Shown: positions 2,235 to 49,686 of the stretch, in pieces
How positions within the stretch are numbered: the first letter of the stretch is position 1
Layout of the letters: each line of letters opens with the position of its first letter
NCBI GenBank assembly: GCA_902595825.1
Contig: CACJRP010000001.1
Span: forward strand, 62,001 to 126,000
Source: an uncultured Bacteroidota bacterium
GTDB taxonomy: Bacteria; Bacteroidota; Bacteroidia; Flavobacteriales; Flavobacteriaceae
Direction of reading: 5' to 3'
DNA length: 64,000 nucleotides
The notes under the pieces: generated by a model
Database searches by the model: none
What the model saw: only the letters and a program-made list of their open reading frames with translations
Told to the model about the DNA's origin: nothing
Program-made: the position numbers and the translations under genes

Positions 2235-3130
2235 GAACTTGGAAAAATTTATTGAAAGACTTCCTAATTTATTTAAAAATCGAGAGAGGTCTTTCTGAAA
2301 ATTCTATTAAAAGTTATTCATATGATATTAAAAACCTTTTAAGCTATATTAACAAGTACAATAGTAACCTGAGCTTAAAACAATGTGATAAACAATTTAT
2401 GCAGGAATTTATATACAAGATTTCGAAAAATATAAATTCAAGGTCACAAGCAAGACTTTTGTCATCTCTAAAAAGTTTTTTTAATTATTTAATTTTTGAA
2501 GGTTATAATAAAACGTCACCAATGGAGTTAATTGAATCTCCAAAAATTGTAACTAAACTACCAGATGTGCTATCAATTGATGAAATCAAGCTATTAATAA
2601 ATAATTCTGAACAAAATAAAGATCATGGGATTAGAAATTCAGCTATATTAGAAACTCTATATGGTAGCGGTTTACGAGTTAGTGAGTTAATAAATTTAAA
2701 ACTTTCTGATATTCACCATGATGATAAGCTTCTTTTGATACAGGGTAAAGGCAATAAGCAAAGGTTGGTGCCATTGGGTTCTAAATGTGAATATAAAATT
2801 AATAAATATGTTAATAATTTTAGAATTTTTAAAAAAATAAAAAAAAACTCAAACGACATAGTTTTTTTAAATAGAAACGGAAATAAACTTACTAGGGCAA
2901 TGATTTTTAATATAGTTAAAGAGGCTCAAAGGATTTCGAATATAAAAAAAACAATTAGTCCGCACACATTCAGGCATTCATTTGCTACTCATTTACTGGA
3001 AAATGGTGCTGATTTGAGATCAATACAAATAATGATGGGACATGAAAATATAACAACAACTGAAGTTTATACTCATTTAGACGCAAAACATTTGTCTAAA
3101 ACTTTAAATAAATATCATCCAAGAAAATAA
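2231..3130 (+). CDS. xerD: Site-specific tyrosine recombinase XerD/XerC type
   Basis: Chromosome dimer resolution recombinase of 299 residues, the usual XerC/D length. The N-terminal SAM-like core-binding domain covers about residues 5-90. The catalytic domain shows the first Arg in YGSGLRVSEL, the HxxR box in SPHTFRHSFATHLL, and the nucleophilic Tyr in ITTTEVYTH, with MMGH preceding it. Bacteroidota commonly carry XerC and XerD at separate loci; the sequence alone does not settle which paralogue this is, and XerD is the common label in this family. It sits alone among housekeeping genes with no integron or phage marks, which argues against a mobile integrase. One base separates its stop from the convergent response regulator gene. 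Confidence 0.88.
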   Translation: MRTWKNLLKDFLIYLKIERGLSENSIKSYSYDIKNLLSYINKYNSNLSLKQCDKQFMQEFIYKISKNINSRSQARLLSSLKSFFNYLIFEGYNKTSPMELIESPKIVTKLPDVLSIDEIKLLINNSEQNKDHGIRNSAILETLYGSGLRVSELINLKLSDIHHDDKLLLIQGKGNKQRLVPLGSKCEYKINKYVNNFRIFKKIKKNSNDIVFLNRNGNKLTRAMIFNIVKEAQRISNIKKTISPHTFRHSFATHLLENGADLRSIQIMMGHENITTTEVYTHLDAKHLSKTLNKYHPRK

Positions 3131-3131
3131 A

Positions 3132-3836
3132 CTAATTATTTACAACCATACGGAAACCTTTCCCATGTATATTAAGGATTTCAACCCTAACATCTTTCTT
3201 TAAATATTTTCTAAGTTTAGCTATGTAAACATCCATTGATCTAGAAGTAAAATAATTATCATCTCTCCATATTTTACTAAGAGCTTGATCTCTTGGTAGA
3301 AGATCGTTTATGTGAATAGCTAATAGTCTAAGAAGTTGATTTTCCTTTGGAGATAATTTAATCGGTTTTTCATCTAAGTGAAATAATAATCTTAGTTTTG
3401 TGTTAAGTCTGAAATTACCAATTTTAAATTGTGTTTCATCTGTGTCAGCAACTTGTTTTATCATTCTTCTTCCAAGAATAGACTTAATTTTAGCCAGTAA
3501 AACTTCAGAATCGAAAGGTTTTGTCAAATAGTCATCTGCTCCCAGTTTAAAACCTTTCAATACATCTTCTTTTAAAGTTTTTGCAGTAAGAAAAATTAGA
3601 GGAACCAAATCATCAGTTTCCCTAATTTCTTTAGCAAGTGTGAATCCGTCTTTGTAAGGCATCATAACGTCAAGAAGACATAAGGAGAATTTTTCTTTTT
3701 TAAATTTTTCAAAGCCCTCTATTCCGTTTTTAGCCAAAGTAACTTGATAACCATTAATTTTAAGATATTCTTTTAGTATGCTGCCAAAATTGGGATCATC
3801 CTCAACTAGTAAAATTTTTTTCTTGTTATTACTCAT
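3132..3836 (-). CDS. OmpR-family response regulator (RprY-like)
   Basis: Two-component response regulator of 234 residues. The receiver domain has the acidic pocket LVEDD near residue 13, phospho-acceptor Asp56 in LLDVMMP, a switch Thr in FLTAK and the conserved Lys in LTKPF. The C-terminal half is an OmpR/PhoB winged helix, with motifs such as LSPKENQLLRLL and SRSMDVYIAKLRKYL. It lies 9 bases downstream of the histidine kinase gene on the same strand, so the two are almost certainly co-transcribed and form a pair. RprY of Bacteroides is a close family match by motif, but the regulon cannot be read from this sequence. Confidence 0.9.
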   Translation of the reverse strand: MSNNKKKILLVEDDPNFGSILKEYLKINGYQVTLAKNGIEGFEKFKKEKFSLCLLDVMMPYKDGFTLAKEIRETDDLVPLIFLTAKTLKEDVLKGFKLGADDYLTKPFDSEVLLAKIKSILGRRMIKQVADTDETQFKIGNFRLNTKLRLLFHLDEKPIKLSPKENQLLRLLAIHINDLLPRDQALSKIWRDDNYFTSRSMDVYIAKLRKYLKKDVRVEILNIHGKGFRMVVNN

Positions 3837-43239: not shown

Positions 43240-43262
43240 ACTGCTTTTAATGAGTTTTGAAA

Positions 43263-44186
43263 ATGAAGAAGGTAAAAAGTAGTTTTAGCATCAAAGATCT
43301 TGAACACATTTCTGGGATAAAAGCCCACACAATAAGAATATGGGAGAAAAGGTACATGCTTCTTTCACCTGAAAGAACCAATACAAACATTAGAAAATAT
43401 TCACTAGACAGCTTAAGAAAGTTACTTAATGTAACACTACTCTATAAAGAGGGTTTTAAAATATCTAAAATCGCAAATCTAGAACCCAAAGAAATACCTA
43501 ATATTGTAAGAGAAATTGCTCTTGAAAATAGTTCAGAAAATATTTCGATTAATGCATTCAAATTAGCAATGGTCAATTTTGATGTTGCTATGTTTGACAC
43601 TAAGTACAAAATTTTACTTGAAAACAATGGTTTTGAATTTGTTTTCTTTAAAATTTTTGTGCCACTTATGACTGAATTAGGTATTTTATGGCAGACAGGT
43701 GCAATTTGTCCATCACATGAACATTTTATAACTAGTTTAATTAAACAAAAAATCCATGTTCAGACTGAAAAAATCCAGAATAAAAAAGTCACCGGTCAAT
43801 CTTCATCAAAATTTGCTATTTTCTTACCTGATAATGAAATTCATGAACTAAGTATATTATTTCTTAATTATTTGATTTTAAGTAAAGGTTATCATACAAT
43901 CTTCTTAGGACAGTCAATCCCATTAAAAAGCTTAAAAACACTACTTTCACAAAATGATATTTTACATTTTATCACTTACATAACTGTTCAACCCTCTAAG
44001 GGTGATATATTTAAGTTTGTTAATATGTTTTATGAAAATATTATCAGAGGTTCGAAAAATAAGTTATCTGTTTTTGGACCTCAAGTAAAATATCTTACTT
44101 CAAAAAACTTACCTGACAATATATTTATCTTTAACAGTCATAAAACTTTTGTAGAAGAATTTTTAACTCAACCGGTCTTTATCTAG
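43263..44186 (+). CDS. MerR-family regulator with CarH-like cobalamin-binding region
   Basis: A 307-residue transcription regulator set to start at ATG 43263 (a TTG lies two codons upstream). The MerR DNA-binding domain covers residues 8-75 (IKDLEHISGIKAHTIRIWEKRY). A helical domain carries W143-x9-E153-H154 (LWQTGAICPSHEHF), the signature of the AdoCbl cap in CarH/LitR photoreceptors. The following Rossmann-like domain has H194 in NEIHELS, at the place of the lower axial His ligand. The residue after Trp, His132 in CarH, is Gln here. It lies directly upstream of crtB and probably controls carotenoid genes, possibly light-dependently. Confidence 0.85.
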   Translation: MKKVKSSFSIKDLEHISGIKAHTIRIWEKRYMLLSPERTNTNIRKYSLDSLRKLLNVTLLYKEGFKISKIANLEPKEIPNIVREIALENSSENISINAFKLAMVNFDVAMFDTKYKILLENNGFEFVFFKIFVPLMTELGILWQTGAICPSHEHFITSLIKQKIHVQTEKIQNKKVTGQSSSKFAIFLPDNEIHELSILFLNYLILSKGYHTIFLGQSIPLKSLKTLLSQNDILHFITYITVQPSKGDIFKFVNMFYENIIRGSKNKLSVFGPQVKYLTSKNLPDNIFIFNSHKTFVEEFLTQPVFI

Positions 44187-44228
44187 TTTTTTGTATTTTT
44201 AATATCGAAATAAAGCTTATTTTAATAA

Positions 44229-45071
44229 ATGAAAGAACTTTTCGATATTGTATCTGAAAAATGTAGCGAGAAAGTAACTAAGTCTTACAGTACGTCATTT
44301 TCAATCGCTACCAAAATGCTGTCTTCTTCTATTCAACAAGATATTTATAATATATATGGATTTGTTAGACTTTCTGACGAAATTGTAGATTCTCTACATG
44401 ACTATAATAAAGAATTATTGTTTAATCGTTTTGAAAAGGATTTAAAAAATTCACTTAAAGAAAAAATCAGTTTAAATCCAATACTAAACTCATTTCAACA
44501 CACCTTTCATAAATATAATTTTGACATGGAACTGGTTAATTCATTCATGAAAAGTATGAGGTGGGATTTACACAAAAAAAAGTATTTAACAAAGTCAGAC
44601 TACAATGAGTATATTTATGGCTCTGCAGACGTTGTAGGTTTAATGTGCTTAAAAGTTTTTGTTAATGGTGACAAAAATAAATATAAAAACCTAAAATCAT
44701 ATGCAATGTCACTAGGCTCAGCTTTCCAAAAAGTTAATTTTCTTAGAGATGTAAAAAATGATTTTGAAAATCTTAACAGGTCATATTTTCCTAAAATTGA
44801 TTTTTTTAATTTTACTGAAAAAGACAAAGATAACATCATATTAGAGATTGAAAAAGACTTTAAAAATGGTCTAAAGGGTATTTTTTTACTACCAGATAAT
44901 TCTAGATTTGGAGTATACACCGCATACAAGTATTATTTTAGATTGTTAGAAAAACTTAAAAGAACTCCATCAAAATTCATAATTTCTACGAGAATTAGAA
45001 TACCTAATTATGTAAAAATGGGACTGCTTGCGGAATCCTATTTGAAATATCATTTTAACACTTATAAATAA
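44229..45071 (+). CDS. crtB: Phytoene synthase
   Basis: Condenses two geranylgeranyl diphosphates to phytoene, the first carotenoid step. The 280-residue all-helical protein has the first Asp-rich motif in VRLSDEIVD (near residue 50) and the second in FLRDVKNDFENLNRSYFP (near residue 175). YGSADVVGLMCLKVF is a further family segment. It sits between the MerR-type regulator (42 bases upstream) and crtZ (1-base gap). crtI and crtY are not in this window. Confidence 0.94.
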   Translation: MKELFDIVSEKCSEKVTKSYSTSFSIATKMLSSSIQQDIYNIYGFVRLSDEIVDSLHDYNKELLFNRFEKDLKNSLKEKISLNPILNSFQHTFHKYNFDMELVNSFMKSMRWDLHKKKYLTKSDYNEYIYGSADVVGLMCLKVFVNGDKNKYKNLKSYAMSLGSAFQKVNFLRDVKNDFENLNRSYFPKIDFFNFTEKDKDNIILEIEKDFKNGLKGIFLLPDNSRFGVYTAYKYYFRLLEKLKRTPSKFIISTRIRIPNYVKMGLLAESYLKYHFNTYK

Positions 45072-45072
45072 C

Positions 45073-45519
45073 ATGTGGACCATCGTTTGGATTTTGATTT
45101 TAATTTTAACTTTTCTTTTTATGGAATTTGTCGCATGGTTTTCTCATAAATTCATAATGCACGGTTTTTTATGGTCATGGCATAAAGATCATCACAAAAA
45201 AGACCATGACTCGTGGTTTGAAAAAAATGATTTGTTTTTCTTGGTTTACGCCATACCGAGTGTCTTTTTTGTAGTCTTATGGGGAGAATATTCGTTTTGG
45301 GCTGGTCTACCCATAGCAATTGGAATTTTTTGCTATGGCTTAACTTATTTTATTGTTCATGATATTTTTATACATAGAAGATTTAAAATATTCAGAAACA
45401 TAGATAACAGTTATGCAAAAGGAATAAGAAGAGCACATAAAATTCATCACAAAAATATTAATAAGGAAGGTGGAGTTTGTTTTGGAATGTTATATGTTCC
45501 AAAAAAATATTTTCAATAG
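45073..45519 (+). CDS. crtZ: Beta-carotene hydroxylase
   Basis: A 148-residue non-heme di-iron membrane hydroxylase that converts beta-carotene to zeaxanthin. Four transmembrane helices surround the iron-binding His clusters: HKFIMH, HKDHHKKDHDSW, a central HDIFIHRR, and RAHKIHHKN. The gene begins 1 base after crtB, so it is co-transcribed and points to a zeaxanthin-type yellow pigment, which is common in marine flavobacteria. Its stop is 4 bases from that of the convergent SurA-like gene. Confidence 0.94.
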   Translation: MWTIVWILILILTFLFMEFVAWFSHKFIMHGFLWSWHKDHHKKDHDSWFEKNDLFFLVYAIPSVFFVVLWGEYSFWAGLPIAIGIFCYGLTYFIVHDIFIHRRFKIFRNIDNSYAKGIRRAHKIHHKNINKEGGVCFGMLYVPKKYFQ

Positions 45520-45523
45520 ACAG

Positions 45524-46912
45524 CTACTGCTTATTCCAATTATTTGAAAAGTTACAAGCTCTAAATGATTTGTTCACATTTACAAAAGTTTCTTCTATCT
45601 TCAATCCTAGCCACTTTTTGACAGTTTCTAGTTGTTTATCTTTAAGAGCTAAGTCCTTTATTTTAGTGAAATCTTTTGAAAAATTTGCAACATGTTCTTC
45701 TAATCTTTTTGAAACCATAATAATTTTGAACTTCTTTAAACCAGAACGGTCTGTCTCAAGAAGGGGAAGTGAAATTTCACCTTCATCTAAATTTTTAACC
45801 TGACTATAAAGTTTTGGATCCATTTTTGTAAGCTCAAAACGAGTGTCTCCTGTTATTGGATTCACTAATTTTCCACCATTATTTCTAGTTTCTTTGTCAT
45901 AAGAAAAATTAAAGGCTGCGTCTTCAAACTTAATTTCTTTATCCACAATCCTTTTTCTTATTGTGTCTAACAGTTTTTTGGACTCTAAAAGTTTGGATTC
46001 GTCAACATTGGGTGTAATTAATATATGCCTTATATCAACTTGTTGCCCTCTTATATTTTCAACAGTCAAAATATGCCAGCCGAATTCTGTTTTAAAAGGA
46101 CTGGAAATTTCCCCTTCTTCAAGACTGAAGGCAACATCCCTAAATTCTTTGACCATTCTGGGTCTTTTTCTATGTAGAGTATATTTTCCACCATTTGCTC
46201 TAGAGCCAGGATCTTGTGAATATAAAATTGCTTTTGATGCAAAACTCAAACCTTTTTCTTCAACGTCATTCTTAAATGAATTTAGTAAGTCAATTACTCT
46301 ATTTTTTTCTTCATCGCTTACACTAGGTTCAATTACGATTTGTGAAATTTCTAATTCGGTTCCAAAAACAGGTAAATCATAAACAGGAATTGACTCATAA
46401 AACAACTTTACTTCTTCAGGTGTAACTTCAACATCATCCACAACCTTTGCTTGCATTAATTGAGATAATTTTTGAATTTTATTCAACTGATATAGCTCAT
46501 CACGAAACGACAATTCATCTTTCTTATTATAGAATTCTAACACTTTCTCTAAACTACCAAGTTGTTCAGTAAAGTATTCTATACTCTGATCAACATAAGA
46601 ATAAATTTCTGTGTCACTTACTTCTAAGCTGTCTTGAATTGCATGGTGAGCATATAATTTATCCTCCATTAATTTACCTAAAAGTTCGCATTTAGTTACA
46701 TTTTTTGTTGAAATACCTTGAGATTCCATTTCTGAAAATGTCTTATCAATATCTGAGTCTAAAATAACATAGTCCCCAACTACTGAAGCAACTCCGTCAA
46801 GCTTAAATCTTGAAGGTTCTTGACTAAAAATACCTTGAAAACCGAGAAATAAGGTAAATAGTGCCTTAAGGTACTTGAGGGTAAATTTCAACTTTATTTG
46901 CTTGTATAGCAT
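45524..46912 (-). CDS. SurA-like periplasmic peptidyl-prolyl isomerase/chaperone
   Basis: A 462-residue exported chaperone. After a signal peptide (FTLKYLKALFTLFLGFQGIFSQ) come a SurA N-terminal domain (VASVVGDYVILDSDIDKTFSEME) and two PpiC/parvulin domains, about residues 175-280 (ISQIVIEPSVS, SQDPGSRANGGKYTLH, EFGWHILTVENI) and 285-390 (IRHILITPNVDES). It likely escorts unfolded beta-barrels to the BAM complex. The ATG lies inside the end of the upstream lipoprotein gene, a 47-base overlap, longer than usual here but needed for the signal peptide. Confidence 0.88.
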   Translation of the reverse strand: MLYKQIKLKFTLKYLKALFTLFLGFQGIFSQEPSRFKLDGVASVVGDYVILDSDIDKTFSEMESQGISTKNVTKCELLGKLMEDKLYAHHAIQDSLEVSDTEIYSYVDQSIEYFTEQLGSLEKVLEFYNKKDELSFRDELYQLNKIQKLSQLMQAKVVDDVEVTPEEVKLFYESIPVYDLPVFGTELEISQIVIEPSVSDEEKNRVIDLLNSFKNDVEEKGLSFASKAILYSQDPGSRANGGKYTLHRKRPRMVKEFRDVAFSLEEGEISSPFKTEFGWHILTVENIRGQQVDIRHILITPNVDESKLLESKKLLDTIRKRIVDKEIKFEDAAFNFSYDKETRNNGGKLVNPITGDTRFELTKMDPKLYSQVKNLDEGEISLPLLETDRSGLKKFKIIMVSKRLEEHVANFSKDFTKIKDLALKDKQLETVKKWLGLKIEETFVNVNKSFRACNFSNNWNKQ

Positions 46913-47729
46913 CGTCTAAAATTTCTTTGTTAAAGTTTTTAAAAAAATCAAGCTTTTTTTTATTAATTAAAATTCTTTCAATATTACCCTCAACTATTTC
47001 ATAAGGTGCAGGGGTATTATATTTTTTATAATCAAAAACTTTTAACAAATATACTTGTAATGAGTCCTTGAAAACAAAAAAATTTCTTTTTTTTAGATCT
47101 ATTTCAAAGTTAAAAATTTTTGATGCTGGGATTTTTTTTAATAGATTATTTTTATTTAGCCAGGCTGGTTTATCCAAAAGAAATTCATCAAACTGATAAT
47201 TAAGAGAGTCTAAAAAAAATAAATCAGTGTCTGAAAAATTTCTAAACCTTGACATAATTAATTTTAAATTATTATTATTTTCAGGTAAAATAATATAAGC
47301 AACTCTATAGATATCATCTTTCAATCTAAAATTTCCTTTATTTTTTTTATAATATATAACCTTTTTTGAACTATCAATTTTATTTTTAAAATGAGAATTT
47401 GATAAGAAATTTCTGTATGTATTAATCCACAGTTGAGACCTGTAGTTTTCTACCATTTTTGCAAGTCGTTTCTGAATTGAGTCATGAAGATATAAGAGTG
47501 ACTGGCTATATACCAGCTTCTTAATTGCCCAATCATCAATAATTGATCTTGACATAATTATACTATCTTCATAAGATAATTCAGGACTTATTTCGTTTTC
47601 AAAATCAGAGAGATATAGAAAAGTAGAGTTAACTCTAGCTATTTTTATTCTTTTATCAGATTTTTGAAAATTATCACAGCATATAAAAAAAATAAATATA
47701 ATTACTAATCTCATTTTAAAATATTTCAT
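46866..47729 (-). CDS. PpiC-like (parvulin/SurA-type) lipoprotein, divergent
   Basis: A lipoprotein of about 287 residues. I place the start at ATG 47729 (MKYFKMRLV), with a TTG one codon upstream and an ATG at 47714 as alternatives. The signal peptide ends in IFFICCDN with the lipid-modified Cys. The body resembles the N-terminal SurA helical region (ARVNSTFLYLSDFENEI), including IYRVAYIILPENN, but no intact PpiC active site can be seen. It lies upstream of the SurA-like gene and overlaps it by 47 bases. The two likely cooperate in outer-membrane protein folding. Confidence 0.72.
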   Translation of the reverse strand: MKYFKMRLVIIFIFFICCDNFQKSDKRIKIARVNSTFLYLSDFENEISPELSYEDSIIMSRSIIDDWAIKKLVYSQSLLYLHDSIQKRLAKMVENYRSQLWINTYRNFLSNSHFKNKIDSSKKVIYYKKNKGNFRLKDDIYRVAYIILPENNNNLKLIMSRFRNFSDTDLFFLDSLNYQFDEFLLDKPAWLNKNNLLKKIPASKIFNFEIDLKKRNFFVFKDSLQVYLLKVFDYKKYNTPAPYEIVEGNIERILINKKKLDFFKNFNKEILDDAIQANKVEIYPQVP

Positions 47730-47837
47730 CAAACTTAAAAAAATAAATAACAGTTTTTTTAAATTATTATAAATACATGAATTGAATGAGGTTTTTTTAT
47801 TTATAATATTGTCATAAATTGCGGTAAATTAAAGGAG

Positions 47838-48182
47838 ATGAGACTTTTAATTTTATTAATGGCATTATTTAATTTCTTCAACCTTGAGAATAGCAGACTT
47901 TATTCCACAAATAAAGAAAATAAAATATCTATTTCACTTTCAAGTTTTGAACAAAAATCTTCCGCAAGACTAGTTTATAAAGATGGTTTTTTAAGTATCG
48001 AAGGAATAGATGGTAATGCCAATGTTACTATATACAGTATAATTGGAAATAAAGTAGCATTCTTCTCAAACATAGATTTAAGAAAATTTAAAGAATCTAT
48101 TCCTTTACAAAGAGAAACAATGTATATTGCTAGAATTGAGTTTTCTAACACAGTCTTTACTTATAAGTTTTTTACTAGATAA
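47838..48182 (+). CDS. Small exported protein consisting largely of a T9SS-type A sorting-domain-like region
   Basis: A 114-residue protein with a short N-terminal hydrophobic signal (residues 2-16) and a C-terminal region that resembles the type A sorting domain of the type IX secretion system, namely VTIYSIIGNKVAFF, then a strand with IDLRKFKESIPL and TMYIARIEFSNTVFTYKFFTR. Full cargo proteins carry this domain after a large catalytic or adhesive region, but here almost nothing lies between. It could be a remnant of a larger gene or a small surface peptide. The first bases follow AAAGGAG directly, with no spacing. Convergent with guaB, 1 base apart. Confidence 0.6.
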   Translation: MRLLILLMALFNFFNLENSRLYSTNKENKISISLSSFEQKSSARLVYKDGFLSIEGIDGNANVTIYSIIGNKVAFFSNIDLRKFKESIPLQRETMYIARIEFSNTVFTYKFFTR

Positions 48183-48183
48183 A

Positions 48184-49656
48184 TTATCTGGAATAGTTAG
48201 GAGCCTCTTTCGTAATTTCAATGTTGTGAGGATGACTTTCTGTTATTCCGGCTGATGTTATTCTAACAAACTCCCCTTTATTTTTCAATTCCTTTATGGT
48301 TTTTGTTCCACAATAACCCATACCTGCTCTAAGTCCTCCCATTAATTGTTGAATGCTTTCATAAATTTCTCCCTTGTAAGGTACTCTCCCTTCAATTCCT
48401 TCCGGAACAAGCTTTTTTATATCATCCTCAACATCCTGAAAATACCTATCTTTACTTCCTTTTTTCATTGCCTCTACACTACCCATCCCCCTATATGATT
48501 TAAATTTTCTGCCCTCATATATGATAGTTTCGCCGGGTGATTCTTTAGTCCCAGCAAGAAGAGAACCAAGCATAACACAATCAGAACCAGCTGCTATTGC
48601 TTTCGGTATATCACCGGTGTAACGAATTCCTCCGTCGGCTATTAAAGGAACCCCAGAACCTTTAATTGCTTTATAAACTGACTTAATTGCAGATAATTGT
48701 GGATATCCAACACCAGCAATAATCCTTGTTGTGCAAATTGAACCTGGCCCAATTCCTACTTTAACTGCATCTGCACCAAGATCAACTAAAAATTTTGCAG
48801 CTTCACCAGTTGCAATATTTCCAACAACTACATCTAAATTTGAAAAAGAATCCTTGATTTCTTTTAATATTTGGGCAACTCTTTTAGAATGTGCATGAGC
48901 TGTATCTATTACGATAGCGTCTACACCCGCTTTTACTAGAGCTTGAGTTCTTTCAATAACATCGTTAGTAACACCTACAGCGGCAGCTAAACGGAGTCTT
49001 CCATAGATATCTTTATTTGAAATGGGTTTAACAGTTTGTTTTGTTATATCCCTGTAAGTAATTAAACCAACCAATCTATATGAATCATCTACAACGGGCA
49101 GTTTTTCAATTTTGTGTTTCTGTAAAATTTCTTCAGCATCCTTTAGGGAGGTGTTTGGGCTTACTGTTATAAGATTTTTAGCGGTCATTACATCCTTAAT
49201 ACTTCTATTTCCATCTCTTTCAAAACGTAAGTCTCTGTTCGTTACAATTCCACATAATTTTCTTGTTTTACTTATTATTGGTATTCCTCCAATGTTGTTT
49301 TTTTTCATGGATTCCTTTGCGTCTGAAACTTTACCATTTAGTGAAAGGGTTACTGGATCTAATATCATACCTGATTCAGCTCTTTTTACAAATCTCACTT
49401 TACTTGCTTGTTTTTCAATAGACATATTTTTATGTAAAACTCCTATTCCACCCTCTCGTGCGAGCGCTATTGCCATCTGACTTTCAGTAACAGTATCCAT
49501 AGCAGCAGAAATAACAGGGATGTTGAGCGGAATATTTTTAGAGAAATATGTTTTAATATCAACCTCTCTTGGCAAAACCTCTGAGTATTTTGGAACGAGT
49601 AATACATCGTCAAATGTTAAACCCTCCTGAATTTTATTATGCTCTTTGTTGATCAT
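48184..49656 (-). CDS. guaB: Inosine-5'-monophosphate dehydrogenase
   Basis: Oxidises IMP to XMP in guanine nucleotide synthesis. The start is set at ATG 49656 ([22 protein letters not shown]), giving 490 residues; an ATG 30 bases upstream (49686) would add ten residues lacking family support. Two CBS domains (about 95-205) interrupt the TIM barrel. The catalytic Cys is in [10 protein letters not shown], and the flap holds [10 protein letters not shown]. On the coding strand TAGATTTGC (complement of 49683-49691) upstream looks like a -7 box, and a TTGCATGCAA palindrome overlaps it. Confidence 0.96.
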
Positions 49657-49676
49657 CGCAACTAAAATAAAAATAG

Positions 49677-49686
49677 TTGCATGCAA
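49677..49686. promoter_or_regulatory. Palindrome and candidate -7 box upstream of guaB
   Basis: The perfect palindrome TTGCATGCAA lies 20 bases before the guaB ATG and overlaps the candidate -7 box TAGATTTG (complement of 49684-49691). No convincing -33 box is seen at the usual distance. The position suits a repressor site, but no regulator is known; a purine-type control is speculative. Confidence 0.3.

What the first reader, a model, noticed from the sequence alone, without database searches (positions are those of the whole stretch)
47838..48182. Tiny exported protein made almost only of a T9SS sorting-domain-like region
The signal peptide is followed within about 30 residues by a domain resembling the T9SS type A C-terminus. 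A standalone sorting domain has no obvious cargo. It could be a relic, a decoy substrate, or a new small surface protein.
Basis: partly seen in the sequence, partly recalled or inferred. Interest (0 to 1): 0.5.

Follow-up and report, generated by a model that had tools for sequence, protein, structure and literature searches.

The report
Secretion tag conserved without its cargo
[quoted passage not shown] relatives keep this label at the same place in the chromosome, sometimes with one of three kinds of cargo and sometimes bare, and the bare form is common in small genomes that lack the enzyme that normally cuts the label off.

Summary
ORF 47838-48182 (+, 114 aa) is a signal-peptide-like helix, a ~20-residue disordered linker and a seven-stranded T9SS type A C-terminal domain (CTD), without cargo. 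It is not a relic: 27 of 397 family genomes hold a bare open frame of this family (108-145 residues), all 27 divergent from a PpiC/SurA-type isomerase operon. In the own genus the CTD is under purifying selection (dN/dS 0.09-0.22). The near-invariant lysine of type A CTDs is present in 28 of 28 readable copies. The predicted fold best matches CTDs solved inside the SprA-PorV translocon.

New point: genomes with the bare form have SprA and PorV in 30 of 30, but the sortase PorU in 6 of 30. In the own lineage the tag would then stay uncut. I read it as a cargo-free T9SS substrate whose CTD is the working part, probably a PorV/SprA ligand. Export and function are inferred. Tiny CTD proteins are known (Fjoh_0547), hence 'new variant'.

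The parts
47838..48182 (+). stand-alone T9SS type A CTD protein gene, 114 aa plus stop
   Evidence: ORF; orthologs; sub-threshold TIGR04183 match, 27 of 29 family members match at E<=0.01
47838..47903 (+). signal-peptide-like hydrophobic N-terminus (about residues 1-22); cleavage site not determined
   Evidence: helices 2-14 and 16-19 in the model; variable between species; inferred
47904..47966 (+). disordered linker (about residues 23-43), the only room for a 'cargo'
   Evidence: pLDDT about 50; codons 2-42 dN/dS 0.26-1.0 in nine defined pairs
47967..48179 (+). CTD, seven-strand beta-sandwich (residues 44-114)
   Evidence: model and PDB matches; dN/dS 0.09-0.22 on codons 43-114, ten pairs
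48165..48167 (+). codon of Lys110, at the place of the near-invariant, PorV-contacting lysine of type A CTDs (RemZ Lys1110)
   Evidence: K in 28 of 28 members with a letter there; role from PMC10994853 section 7
47733..47837 (.). 105-bp divergent intergenic region; one Bacteroidetes-type promoter-like match at 47782-47811 with one mismatch (consensus recalled, chance rate not estimated)
46866..47732 (-). first gene of the divergent operon: PpiC-type isomerase-like protein (labelled PpiC2; lipoprotein by eye)
   Evidence: ORF; ortholog of L063:6224-7081, whose Rotamase_2 match is below Pfam's cut-off; the window copy has no NCBIfam match up to E 1e-5
45524..46912 (-). second gene of the divergent operon: SurA-type peptidyl-prolyl isomerase
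   Evidence: SurA model 76.4 bits, below that model's cut-off; conserved order
48184..49686 (-). guaB, IMP dehydrogenase, convergent neighbour
   Evidence: TIGR01302, 613.9 bits

Best explanation
[quoted passage not shown] It is exported to the periplasm by Sec (inferred), its CTD folds into the usual beta-sandwich (predicted), and the SprA-PorV translocon recognises that CTD as it does an ordinary type A tag (inferred from fold and the retained lysine). The CTD, not a hidden mini-cargo in the linker, is the selected part (shown by the pattern of selection). In the window's lineage PorU is missing from its usual place beside porV (shown), so the tag would not be cut off (inferred) and the product would stay an intact, CTD-bearing ligand of PorV/SprA or be released whole. 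The locus is a 'constant tag, variable cargo' site: orthologous CTDs carry one of three cargo types or none (shown). The most likely job is to occupy or regulate PorV/SprA, or to act as a small surface factor held by PorV, as the uncut CTDs of PorU and PorZ are held by PorV and PorQ (speculative, about 0.3).
For: Fold: VIA Z 10.4 to the RemZ CTD inside SprA-PorV (8gl8), 9.8 to the RemA and NucA CTDs; Foldseek best E 8.9e-4 to the RgpB CTD. Family: TIGR04183 at E<=0.01 in 27 of 29 members. Lysine: 28 of 28; also K fifth from the end in 8 of 9 at-locus cargo proteins, and one place nearer the end in the ninth, G325. Conservation: 27 bare copies in 397 genomes; the 35 best rows of that search are all at the one locus, 27 bare and 8 with cargo. 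Selection on the CTD more than on the linker. Same-genus pair G223 (cargo) and G396 (bare): CTDs 68% identical over 74 residues, neighbouring isomerase 77%. T9SS: SprA 30 of 30, PorV 30 of 30, PorU 6 of 30; porU directly beside porV in 6 of 6 PorU-positive genomes by coordinates; gldJ directly beside porV, without porU, in 11 of 11 PorU-negative regions read. PorU and PorZ keep their CTDs as anchors (PMC10202324 passages); PorA's CTD binds PorV and PorA affects T9SS gene expression (PMC7712824 abstract and passages).
Against: The window copy and eight close copies are below the TIGR04183 cut-off; the window copy has no Pfam match. Matches begin at profile position 9-17 of 72, so the N-terminal PNP motif (recalled) of the standard model is missing. 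DUF3244 proteins have a similar fold (Z 8.3-8.8), Tp47 scores 9.2 and many unrelated sandwiches score 8 or more, so fold alone does not prove T9SS use. SprA and PorV may be near-universal in the family (base rate not measured), so their presence is weak evidence. Loss of PorU is neither needed nor enough for the bare form: 6 of 30 bare-gene genomes have PorU, and 39 of 138 genomes without the bare gene also lack PorU. The authors of PMC10994853 suggest that the lysine's main role lies elsewhere in transport than its PorV contact. Fjoh_0547, a 112-residue CTD protein, is reported in culture fluid of sprA and porV mutants (cited in PMC7712824), so tiny CTD proteins may not need the translocon. 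No expression or localisation data.
Confidence: 0.6

Rival explanations
1. A periplasmic partner of the neighbouring SurA/PpiC operon: a CTD-derived beta-sandwich that works with, or reports to, outer-membrane chaperones and never leaves the cell.
For: The 27 bare copies and nine cargo forms are all divergent from that operon; short intergenic regions, 55-172 bp in seven of eight measured, 745 bp in G186; where guaB is elsewhere the isomerase link remains (G161).
Against: The same place also holds cargo+CTD forms, and 60 of 60 further regions upstream of the isomerase marker showed no CTD gene, so the operon does not need it. Among the PDB chains listed for these isomerases none is the SprA-bound PPI.
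Confidence: 0.15
2. A small free secreted beta-sandwich protein with its own outside function (lectin, adhesin, inhibitor), leaving by T9SS or by another route like Fjoh_0547.
For: Precedent Fjoh_0547, 112 aa, outside in sprA and porV mutants (cited in PMC7712824); without PorU nothing known would fix it to LPS.
Against: The positions conserved in over 70% of members are few and look like fold positions plus the lysine; a binding site was not looked for in any other way.
Confidence: 0.15
3. A leftover of a cargo gene that lost its cargo and persists by drift.
For: Cargo-bearing forms exist at the same locus; one copy (L008, G026) has a frame break near the end.
Against: dN/dS 0.09-0.22 on the CTD in ten pairs; 27 bare copies; on the neighbour-gene tree the bare state needs only 2 changes, not the scatter expected of repeated decay.
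Confidence: 0.05
4. A docking cassette: the bare form is mainly a signal-peptide-plus-tag frame into which cargo modules are captured, and the conserved locus reflects that.
For: Three cargo types at one locus; types a and c are each shared by genomes that are not neighbours on the tree; bare and loaded forms in one genus.
Against: Selection on a bare tag over long times needs a present use, not a future one.
Confidence: 0.05

Closest known systems
T9SS type A sorting domain (TIGR04183 / Por_Secre_tail)
   Same: Fold, C-terminal position, the near-invariant lysine, TIGR04183 match at E<=0.01 in 27 of 29 members
   Different: Described members are mostly the tails of cargo proteins (recalled); here the domain is nearly the whole mature protein. 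The N-terminal part of the model is not matched.
Fjoh_0547 of Flavobacterium johnsoniae (112-aa CTD protein)
   Same: Size and CTD as described in PMC7712824 (passage)
   Different: Sequence not seen here, so orthology is untested; it may belong to the second bare-CTD family noted below.
PorA of Porphyromonas gingivalis (PGN_0123, 246 aa)
   Same: Small CTD protein; its CTD binds PorV; present on the surface with its CTD (PMC7712824)
   Different: PorA has an N-terminal FimH-like domain; the window protein has no such domain.
PorU and PorZ (uncut CTDs as anchors)
   Same: CTD kept and used to bind PorV or PorQ (PMC10202324 passages); PorZ among the fold matches (5m11, Z 8.3)
   Different: Both have large functional domains; the window protein has only the anchor.
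DUF3244 proteins of Bacteroides (3sd2, 4g5a, 3d33)
   Same: Small chains with a similar sandwich, fold Z 8.3-8.8
   Different: No DUF3244 match among the families listed for the 29 members at E<=0.1; T9SS CTDs score higher. That they are exported stand-alone proteins is recalled.

Membership tests
T9SS type A CTD (TIGR04183) | score over the curated cut-off (23 bits) | tested here: inconclusive
   Window copy 19.1 bits, below; three distant orthologs 33.0, 33.8, 24.0, above; two bare copies above, nine below (window's included); 27 of 29 match at E<=0.01
T9SS type A CTD (TIGR04183) | seven-strand beta-sandwich | tested here: met
   model: seven strands at 44-112; Z 10.4 to RemZ CTD
T9SS type A CTD (TIGR04183) | near-invariant lysine close to the C-terminus | tested here: met
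   K110, 28 of 28 with a letter there
T9SS type A CTD (TIGR04183) | located at the C-terminus of a Sec-exported protein | tested here: inconclusive
   C-terminal position seen; Sec signal only inferred, no predictor
T9SS substrate | translocon genes in the genome | tested here: met
   SprA and PorV over the cut-off in 30 of 30 genomes, G000 included
T9SS substrate | secreted in an SprA/PorV-dependent way | not testable with these tools
   needs an experiment
T9SS substrate processed by PorU | sortase PorU present | tested here: not met
   no PorU at E<=1e-20 in G000 and five further own-genus genomes, 24 of 30 genomes in all; slot beside porV empty. Met in the six tag-rich genomes.
DUF3244 (PF11589, accession recalled) | Pfam match | tested here: not met
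   not among the 13 families listed for 29 members at E<=0.1; fold similar

The most novel reading that the evidence does not exclude
A constant-tag, variable-cargo locus whose empty allele has become a working part of a sortase-less Type 9 system: an uncut CTD that permanently engages SprA-PorV (as cap, occupancy sensor or loading regulator), kept in marine Flavobacteriaceae that have dropped PorU and most other tagged cargo.
Probability: 0.27. Interest if true: 0.75.

Novelty: new variant of a known kind. Interest (0 to 1): 0.52.

Why it matters
Secretion tags are thought of as postal labels that are removed on delivery. Here is a label conserved for its own sake, mostly in genomes that keep the translocon and carrier (SprA, PorV) but have lost the sortase. 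It gives a natural, minimal system for asking what a CTD does once it is on PorV, whether T9SS works without PorU, and how cargo modules move on and off a tag at a fixed locus. The bare form is present in named species, Pustulibacterium marinum and Neptunitalea chrysea, so the question can be put to the bench.

Tried and rejected
BamP or another BAM subunit as the identity of the gene: followed because a listing gave a paper on Bacteroidota outer-membrane biogenesis (PMC12611786; outline, passages and part 1 of section 5 read) with new periplasmic subunits. BamP has two folded domains and a barrel-inserting loop and does not fit.

The isomerases of the divergent operon as the PPI bound to SprA: phmmer of the 651-aa, 286-aa and SurA proteins against the PDB listed no chain of those translocon entries (the first list shows 60 of 67 rows, the second has no hit at all).

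The conserved ~1276-aa CTD protein of PorU-less genomes as a hidden PorU: the G000 copy is an M12B reprolysin-type peptidase with P-domain and CTD.

Cyclodextrin glycosyltransferase and hemolytic lectin matches of the single protein in the PDB (E 0.004 and 0.38): not among the 13 sequences found with the family profile.

Limits of the counts. The 60 further regions were taken from genomes not already shown to have the gene, in order of similarity of the marker gene; gene labels used a non-overlapping ORF set, which once hid a real copy (G279, seen again). The tree used 47 of the 51 loci listed in its script: in L132, L135 and L083 no marker was picked up (in L132 an overlapping ORF hid it) and L118 was too short. 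The PorU association (2 of 11 bare-form genomes against 99 of 138 others; 0 of 16 PorU-positive against 8 of 12 PorU-negative genomes up to 2.4 Mb, tested) was tallied by hand from the listings and rounded genome sizes, is not corrected for kinship and may be one event. YN00 estimates mostly failed numerically; only NG86 is used. PorU2 (NF052324) was not searched for. In the class-wide search only 11 first-look candidates were scored in most genomes. Statements about print rest on the searches only.

Full report
What is there. The ORF at 47838-48182 (+) encodes 114 residues. The model (29 sequences, mean pLDDT 84.2, pTM 0.61) shows an N-terminal hydrophobic helix, a low-confidence stretch around residues 20-43 and a confident seven-strand sandwich from 44 to 112. 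Alone, the protein is a sub-threshold match to TIGR04183 (19.1 bits, cut-off 23) and has no Pfam match up to E 10; in the genome search nine bare copies, the window's included, are below the cut-off and two above it. With its relatives the case is clear: 27 of 29 stand-alone members match TIGR04183 at E<=0.01, and three more distant ones scanned singly exceed the cut-off (33.0, 33.8, 24.0 bits). The best structural matches are CTDs of T9SS substrates: Foldseek RgpB CTD E 8.9e-4; VIA Z 10.4, 9.8 and 9.8 for RemZ, RemA and NucA CTDs bound in the SprA-PorV translocon. Tp47 (9.2), glucuronidase sandwiches and DUF3244 proteins (up to 8.8) follow closely, so fold alone is not proof.

The lysine. Lauber et al. 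2024 (PMC10994853; outline, passages, sections 7 and 12 read) report that the CTD surface touching the translocon is poorly conserved except for one near-invariant, functionally important lysine, RemZ Lys1110, four residues before the end of that chain (range 1040-1114). Window Lys110 of 114 is at that place. It is K in 28 of 28 stand-alone proteins with a letter there; the 29th (L008) has a frame break before it. The authors note that the exact PorV contact differs between structures and suggest that the lysine's main role lies elsewhere in transport.

It is a conserved gene. The single protein found copies in five of six other genomes of the genus (not in G003, 65% complete) and in three other genera among 99 relatives. 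With a profile of 14 sequences over 397 family genomes, the 35 best rows are 27 bare open frames of 108-145 residues (E<=2.4e-19) and 8 longer genes. Gene order around all 35, labelled by script, shows the gene divergent from a PpiC-type isomerase gene of an operon that goes on to SurA. A ninth long form (G113, E 8.8e-9) is at the same place. In 395 genomes drawn from the class, nothing but the own genome came below E 1e-9; of the 23 other rows listed, 20 are open frames of 341 residues or more and three are of 119-161. The neighbour guaB is common but not necessary: in G161 it is on another contig. Sixty further regions upstream of the isomerase marker held no CTD gene (0 of 60).

Selection. 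In ten pairs of five own-genus copies, NG86 dN/dS is 0.09-0.22 for codons 43-114 and 0.26-1.0 for codons 2-42 (nine defined pairs). The CTD is the constrained part; the linker is not a hidden peptide under comparable constraint.

One locus, several cargoes or none. The nine long forms fall into three cargo types: a (G034, G299, G410; G299 has an AMPK1_CBM match just over the cut-off), b (G322, G326, G113) and c (G223, G325, G311). Within a type the proteins are 37-88% identical; across types the best match in this nine-sequence comparison is E 0.010 (G034 with G113), so the types are distinct but a remote link between a and b is not excluded. G223 (cargo c) and G396 (bare) are of one genus; their CTDs are 68% identical over 74 residues and the adjacent isomerases 77%. 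On a tree of the neighbouring isomerase (47 rows: 27 bare, 8 cargo, 12 none) the bare state needs 2 changes against 15.3 in shuffles, 'none' 7 against 10.9, and the cargo state 7 against 7.6. The root is a midpoint with weak support, so which state is older is open; the tree is compatible with an old bare form and later cargo capture and gene loss.

A Type 9 system without its sortase. In the 30 genomes with the bare gene that I gave to the tool (the 27 plus G001, G004, G006), SprA is found in 30, PorV in 30 and PorU in 6. The six are the genomes rich in type A tags (38-84 TIGR04183 hits at E<=1e-3); the other 24 have 1-7. In the six, porU lies directly beside porV by coordinates. Of 12 regions around porV that I read, the PorU-positive G161 has porU between gldJ and porV; in 11 of 11 PorU-negative genomes, including the single-contig G186, gldJ is directly beside porV (one search names gldJ and porV in G000, gldJ in G186 and porU in G161, the other regions are by eye). 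Over 149 family genomes PorU is in 101; in bare-gene genomes 2 of 11, in the rest 99 of 138 (Fisher p 7e-4); among genomes up to 2.4 Mb, 0 of 16 with PorU and 8 of 12 without have the bare gene (p 1.6e-4). Neither test is corrected for kinship. PorU loss is neither needed for the bare form (6 of 30 have PorU) nor enough (39 of 138 without the bare gene also lack PorU). The other tagged proteins of these genomes include an M12B reprolysin-type peptidase (G000), so type A tags are still in use there and would remain uncut unless another protease acts.

How it most likely works. Shown: cargo-free architecture, conserved lysine, selection on the CTD, conserved locus, PorU absence. Predicted: the CTD fold. 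Inferred: Sec export, recognition by SprA-PorV, lack of cutting. Speculative: that the uncut CTD stays with PorV/SprA as cap, sensor or small surface factor. Precedents: PorU and PorZ keep their CTDs as anchors to PorV and PorQ (PMC10202324, passages); PorA's CTD binds PorV and PorA affects T9SS gene expression in P. gingivalis (PMC7712824, abstract and passages); type A CTDs are recognised by PorV (PMC12618676, abstract and passages). PMC7712824 also cites a 112-residue CTD protein, Fjoh_0547, secreted even in sprA and porV mutants.

Named carriers. A copy identical to that of G161 is in Pustulibacterium marinum CGMCC 1.12333, and a 60% identical one in Neptunitalea chrysea NBRC 110019; the contig lengths equal those of G161 and G407. 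Both are Flavobacteriaceae.

Novelty. Tiny CTD proteins are known to exist, so this is not a new kind. I saw no paper on a conserved cargo-free CTD family, on tag-constant cargo-variable loci, or on bare CTDs in PorU-less genomes in the listings, which cover only open-licence papers and show only the best rows.

Noticed in passing
L137, L139, L140, L141, L142 (small gene at about 3000-3700), L262:2481-2852 (+), L263:2523-2879 (-): A second stand-alone CTD family (109-126 aa, with the PNP motif; L139 60.5 bits to TIGR04183), divergent from a two-component system (Pfam-tested in L262; by eye elsewhere); in the first five a long CTD cargo gene follows. Fjoh_0547 might belong here; not testable.
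   Followed up: partly
L260:1955-2401 (-) (G000:C3) and L261:2693-3115 (+) (G005:C6): The window's own genome has another small CTD protein (148 aa, 36.3 bits to TIGR04183) upstream of a 426-aa gene and a gene with collagen-like repeats.
   Followed up: no
L210-L219, L221 (porV regions): porU is missing between gldJ and porV in many small marine Flavobacteriaceae genomes that keep SprA and PorV: a sortase-less Type 9 system that deserves its own study.
   Followed up: partly
L256:1559-5389 (-), L257, L258, L259: A ~1280-aa CTD protein (M12B reprolysin-type in G000), between genes that look like pth and ribF (by eye), is one of the few tagged proteins kept in the four PorU-less genomes read.
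   Followed up: partly
window 43257-45519: Genes that look like a MerR-type regulator, phytoene synthase and carotene hydroxylase (by eye) follow the isomerase operon; neighbours of the same sizes appear in L059-L061.
   Followed up: no
L008 near 1507 (-) (G026): The bare CTD gene of G026 has a frame break shortly before its end; assembly error or real, not resolved.
   Followed up: no
L063:2996-3681 (-) and many of the regions read: Two small genes (151 aa and 77 aa, no NCBIfam match up to E 1e-3), together or singly, sit beside the isomerase operon in many of the family genomes read.
   Followed up: no
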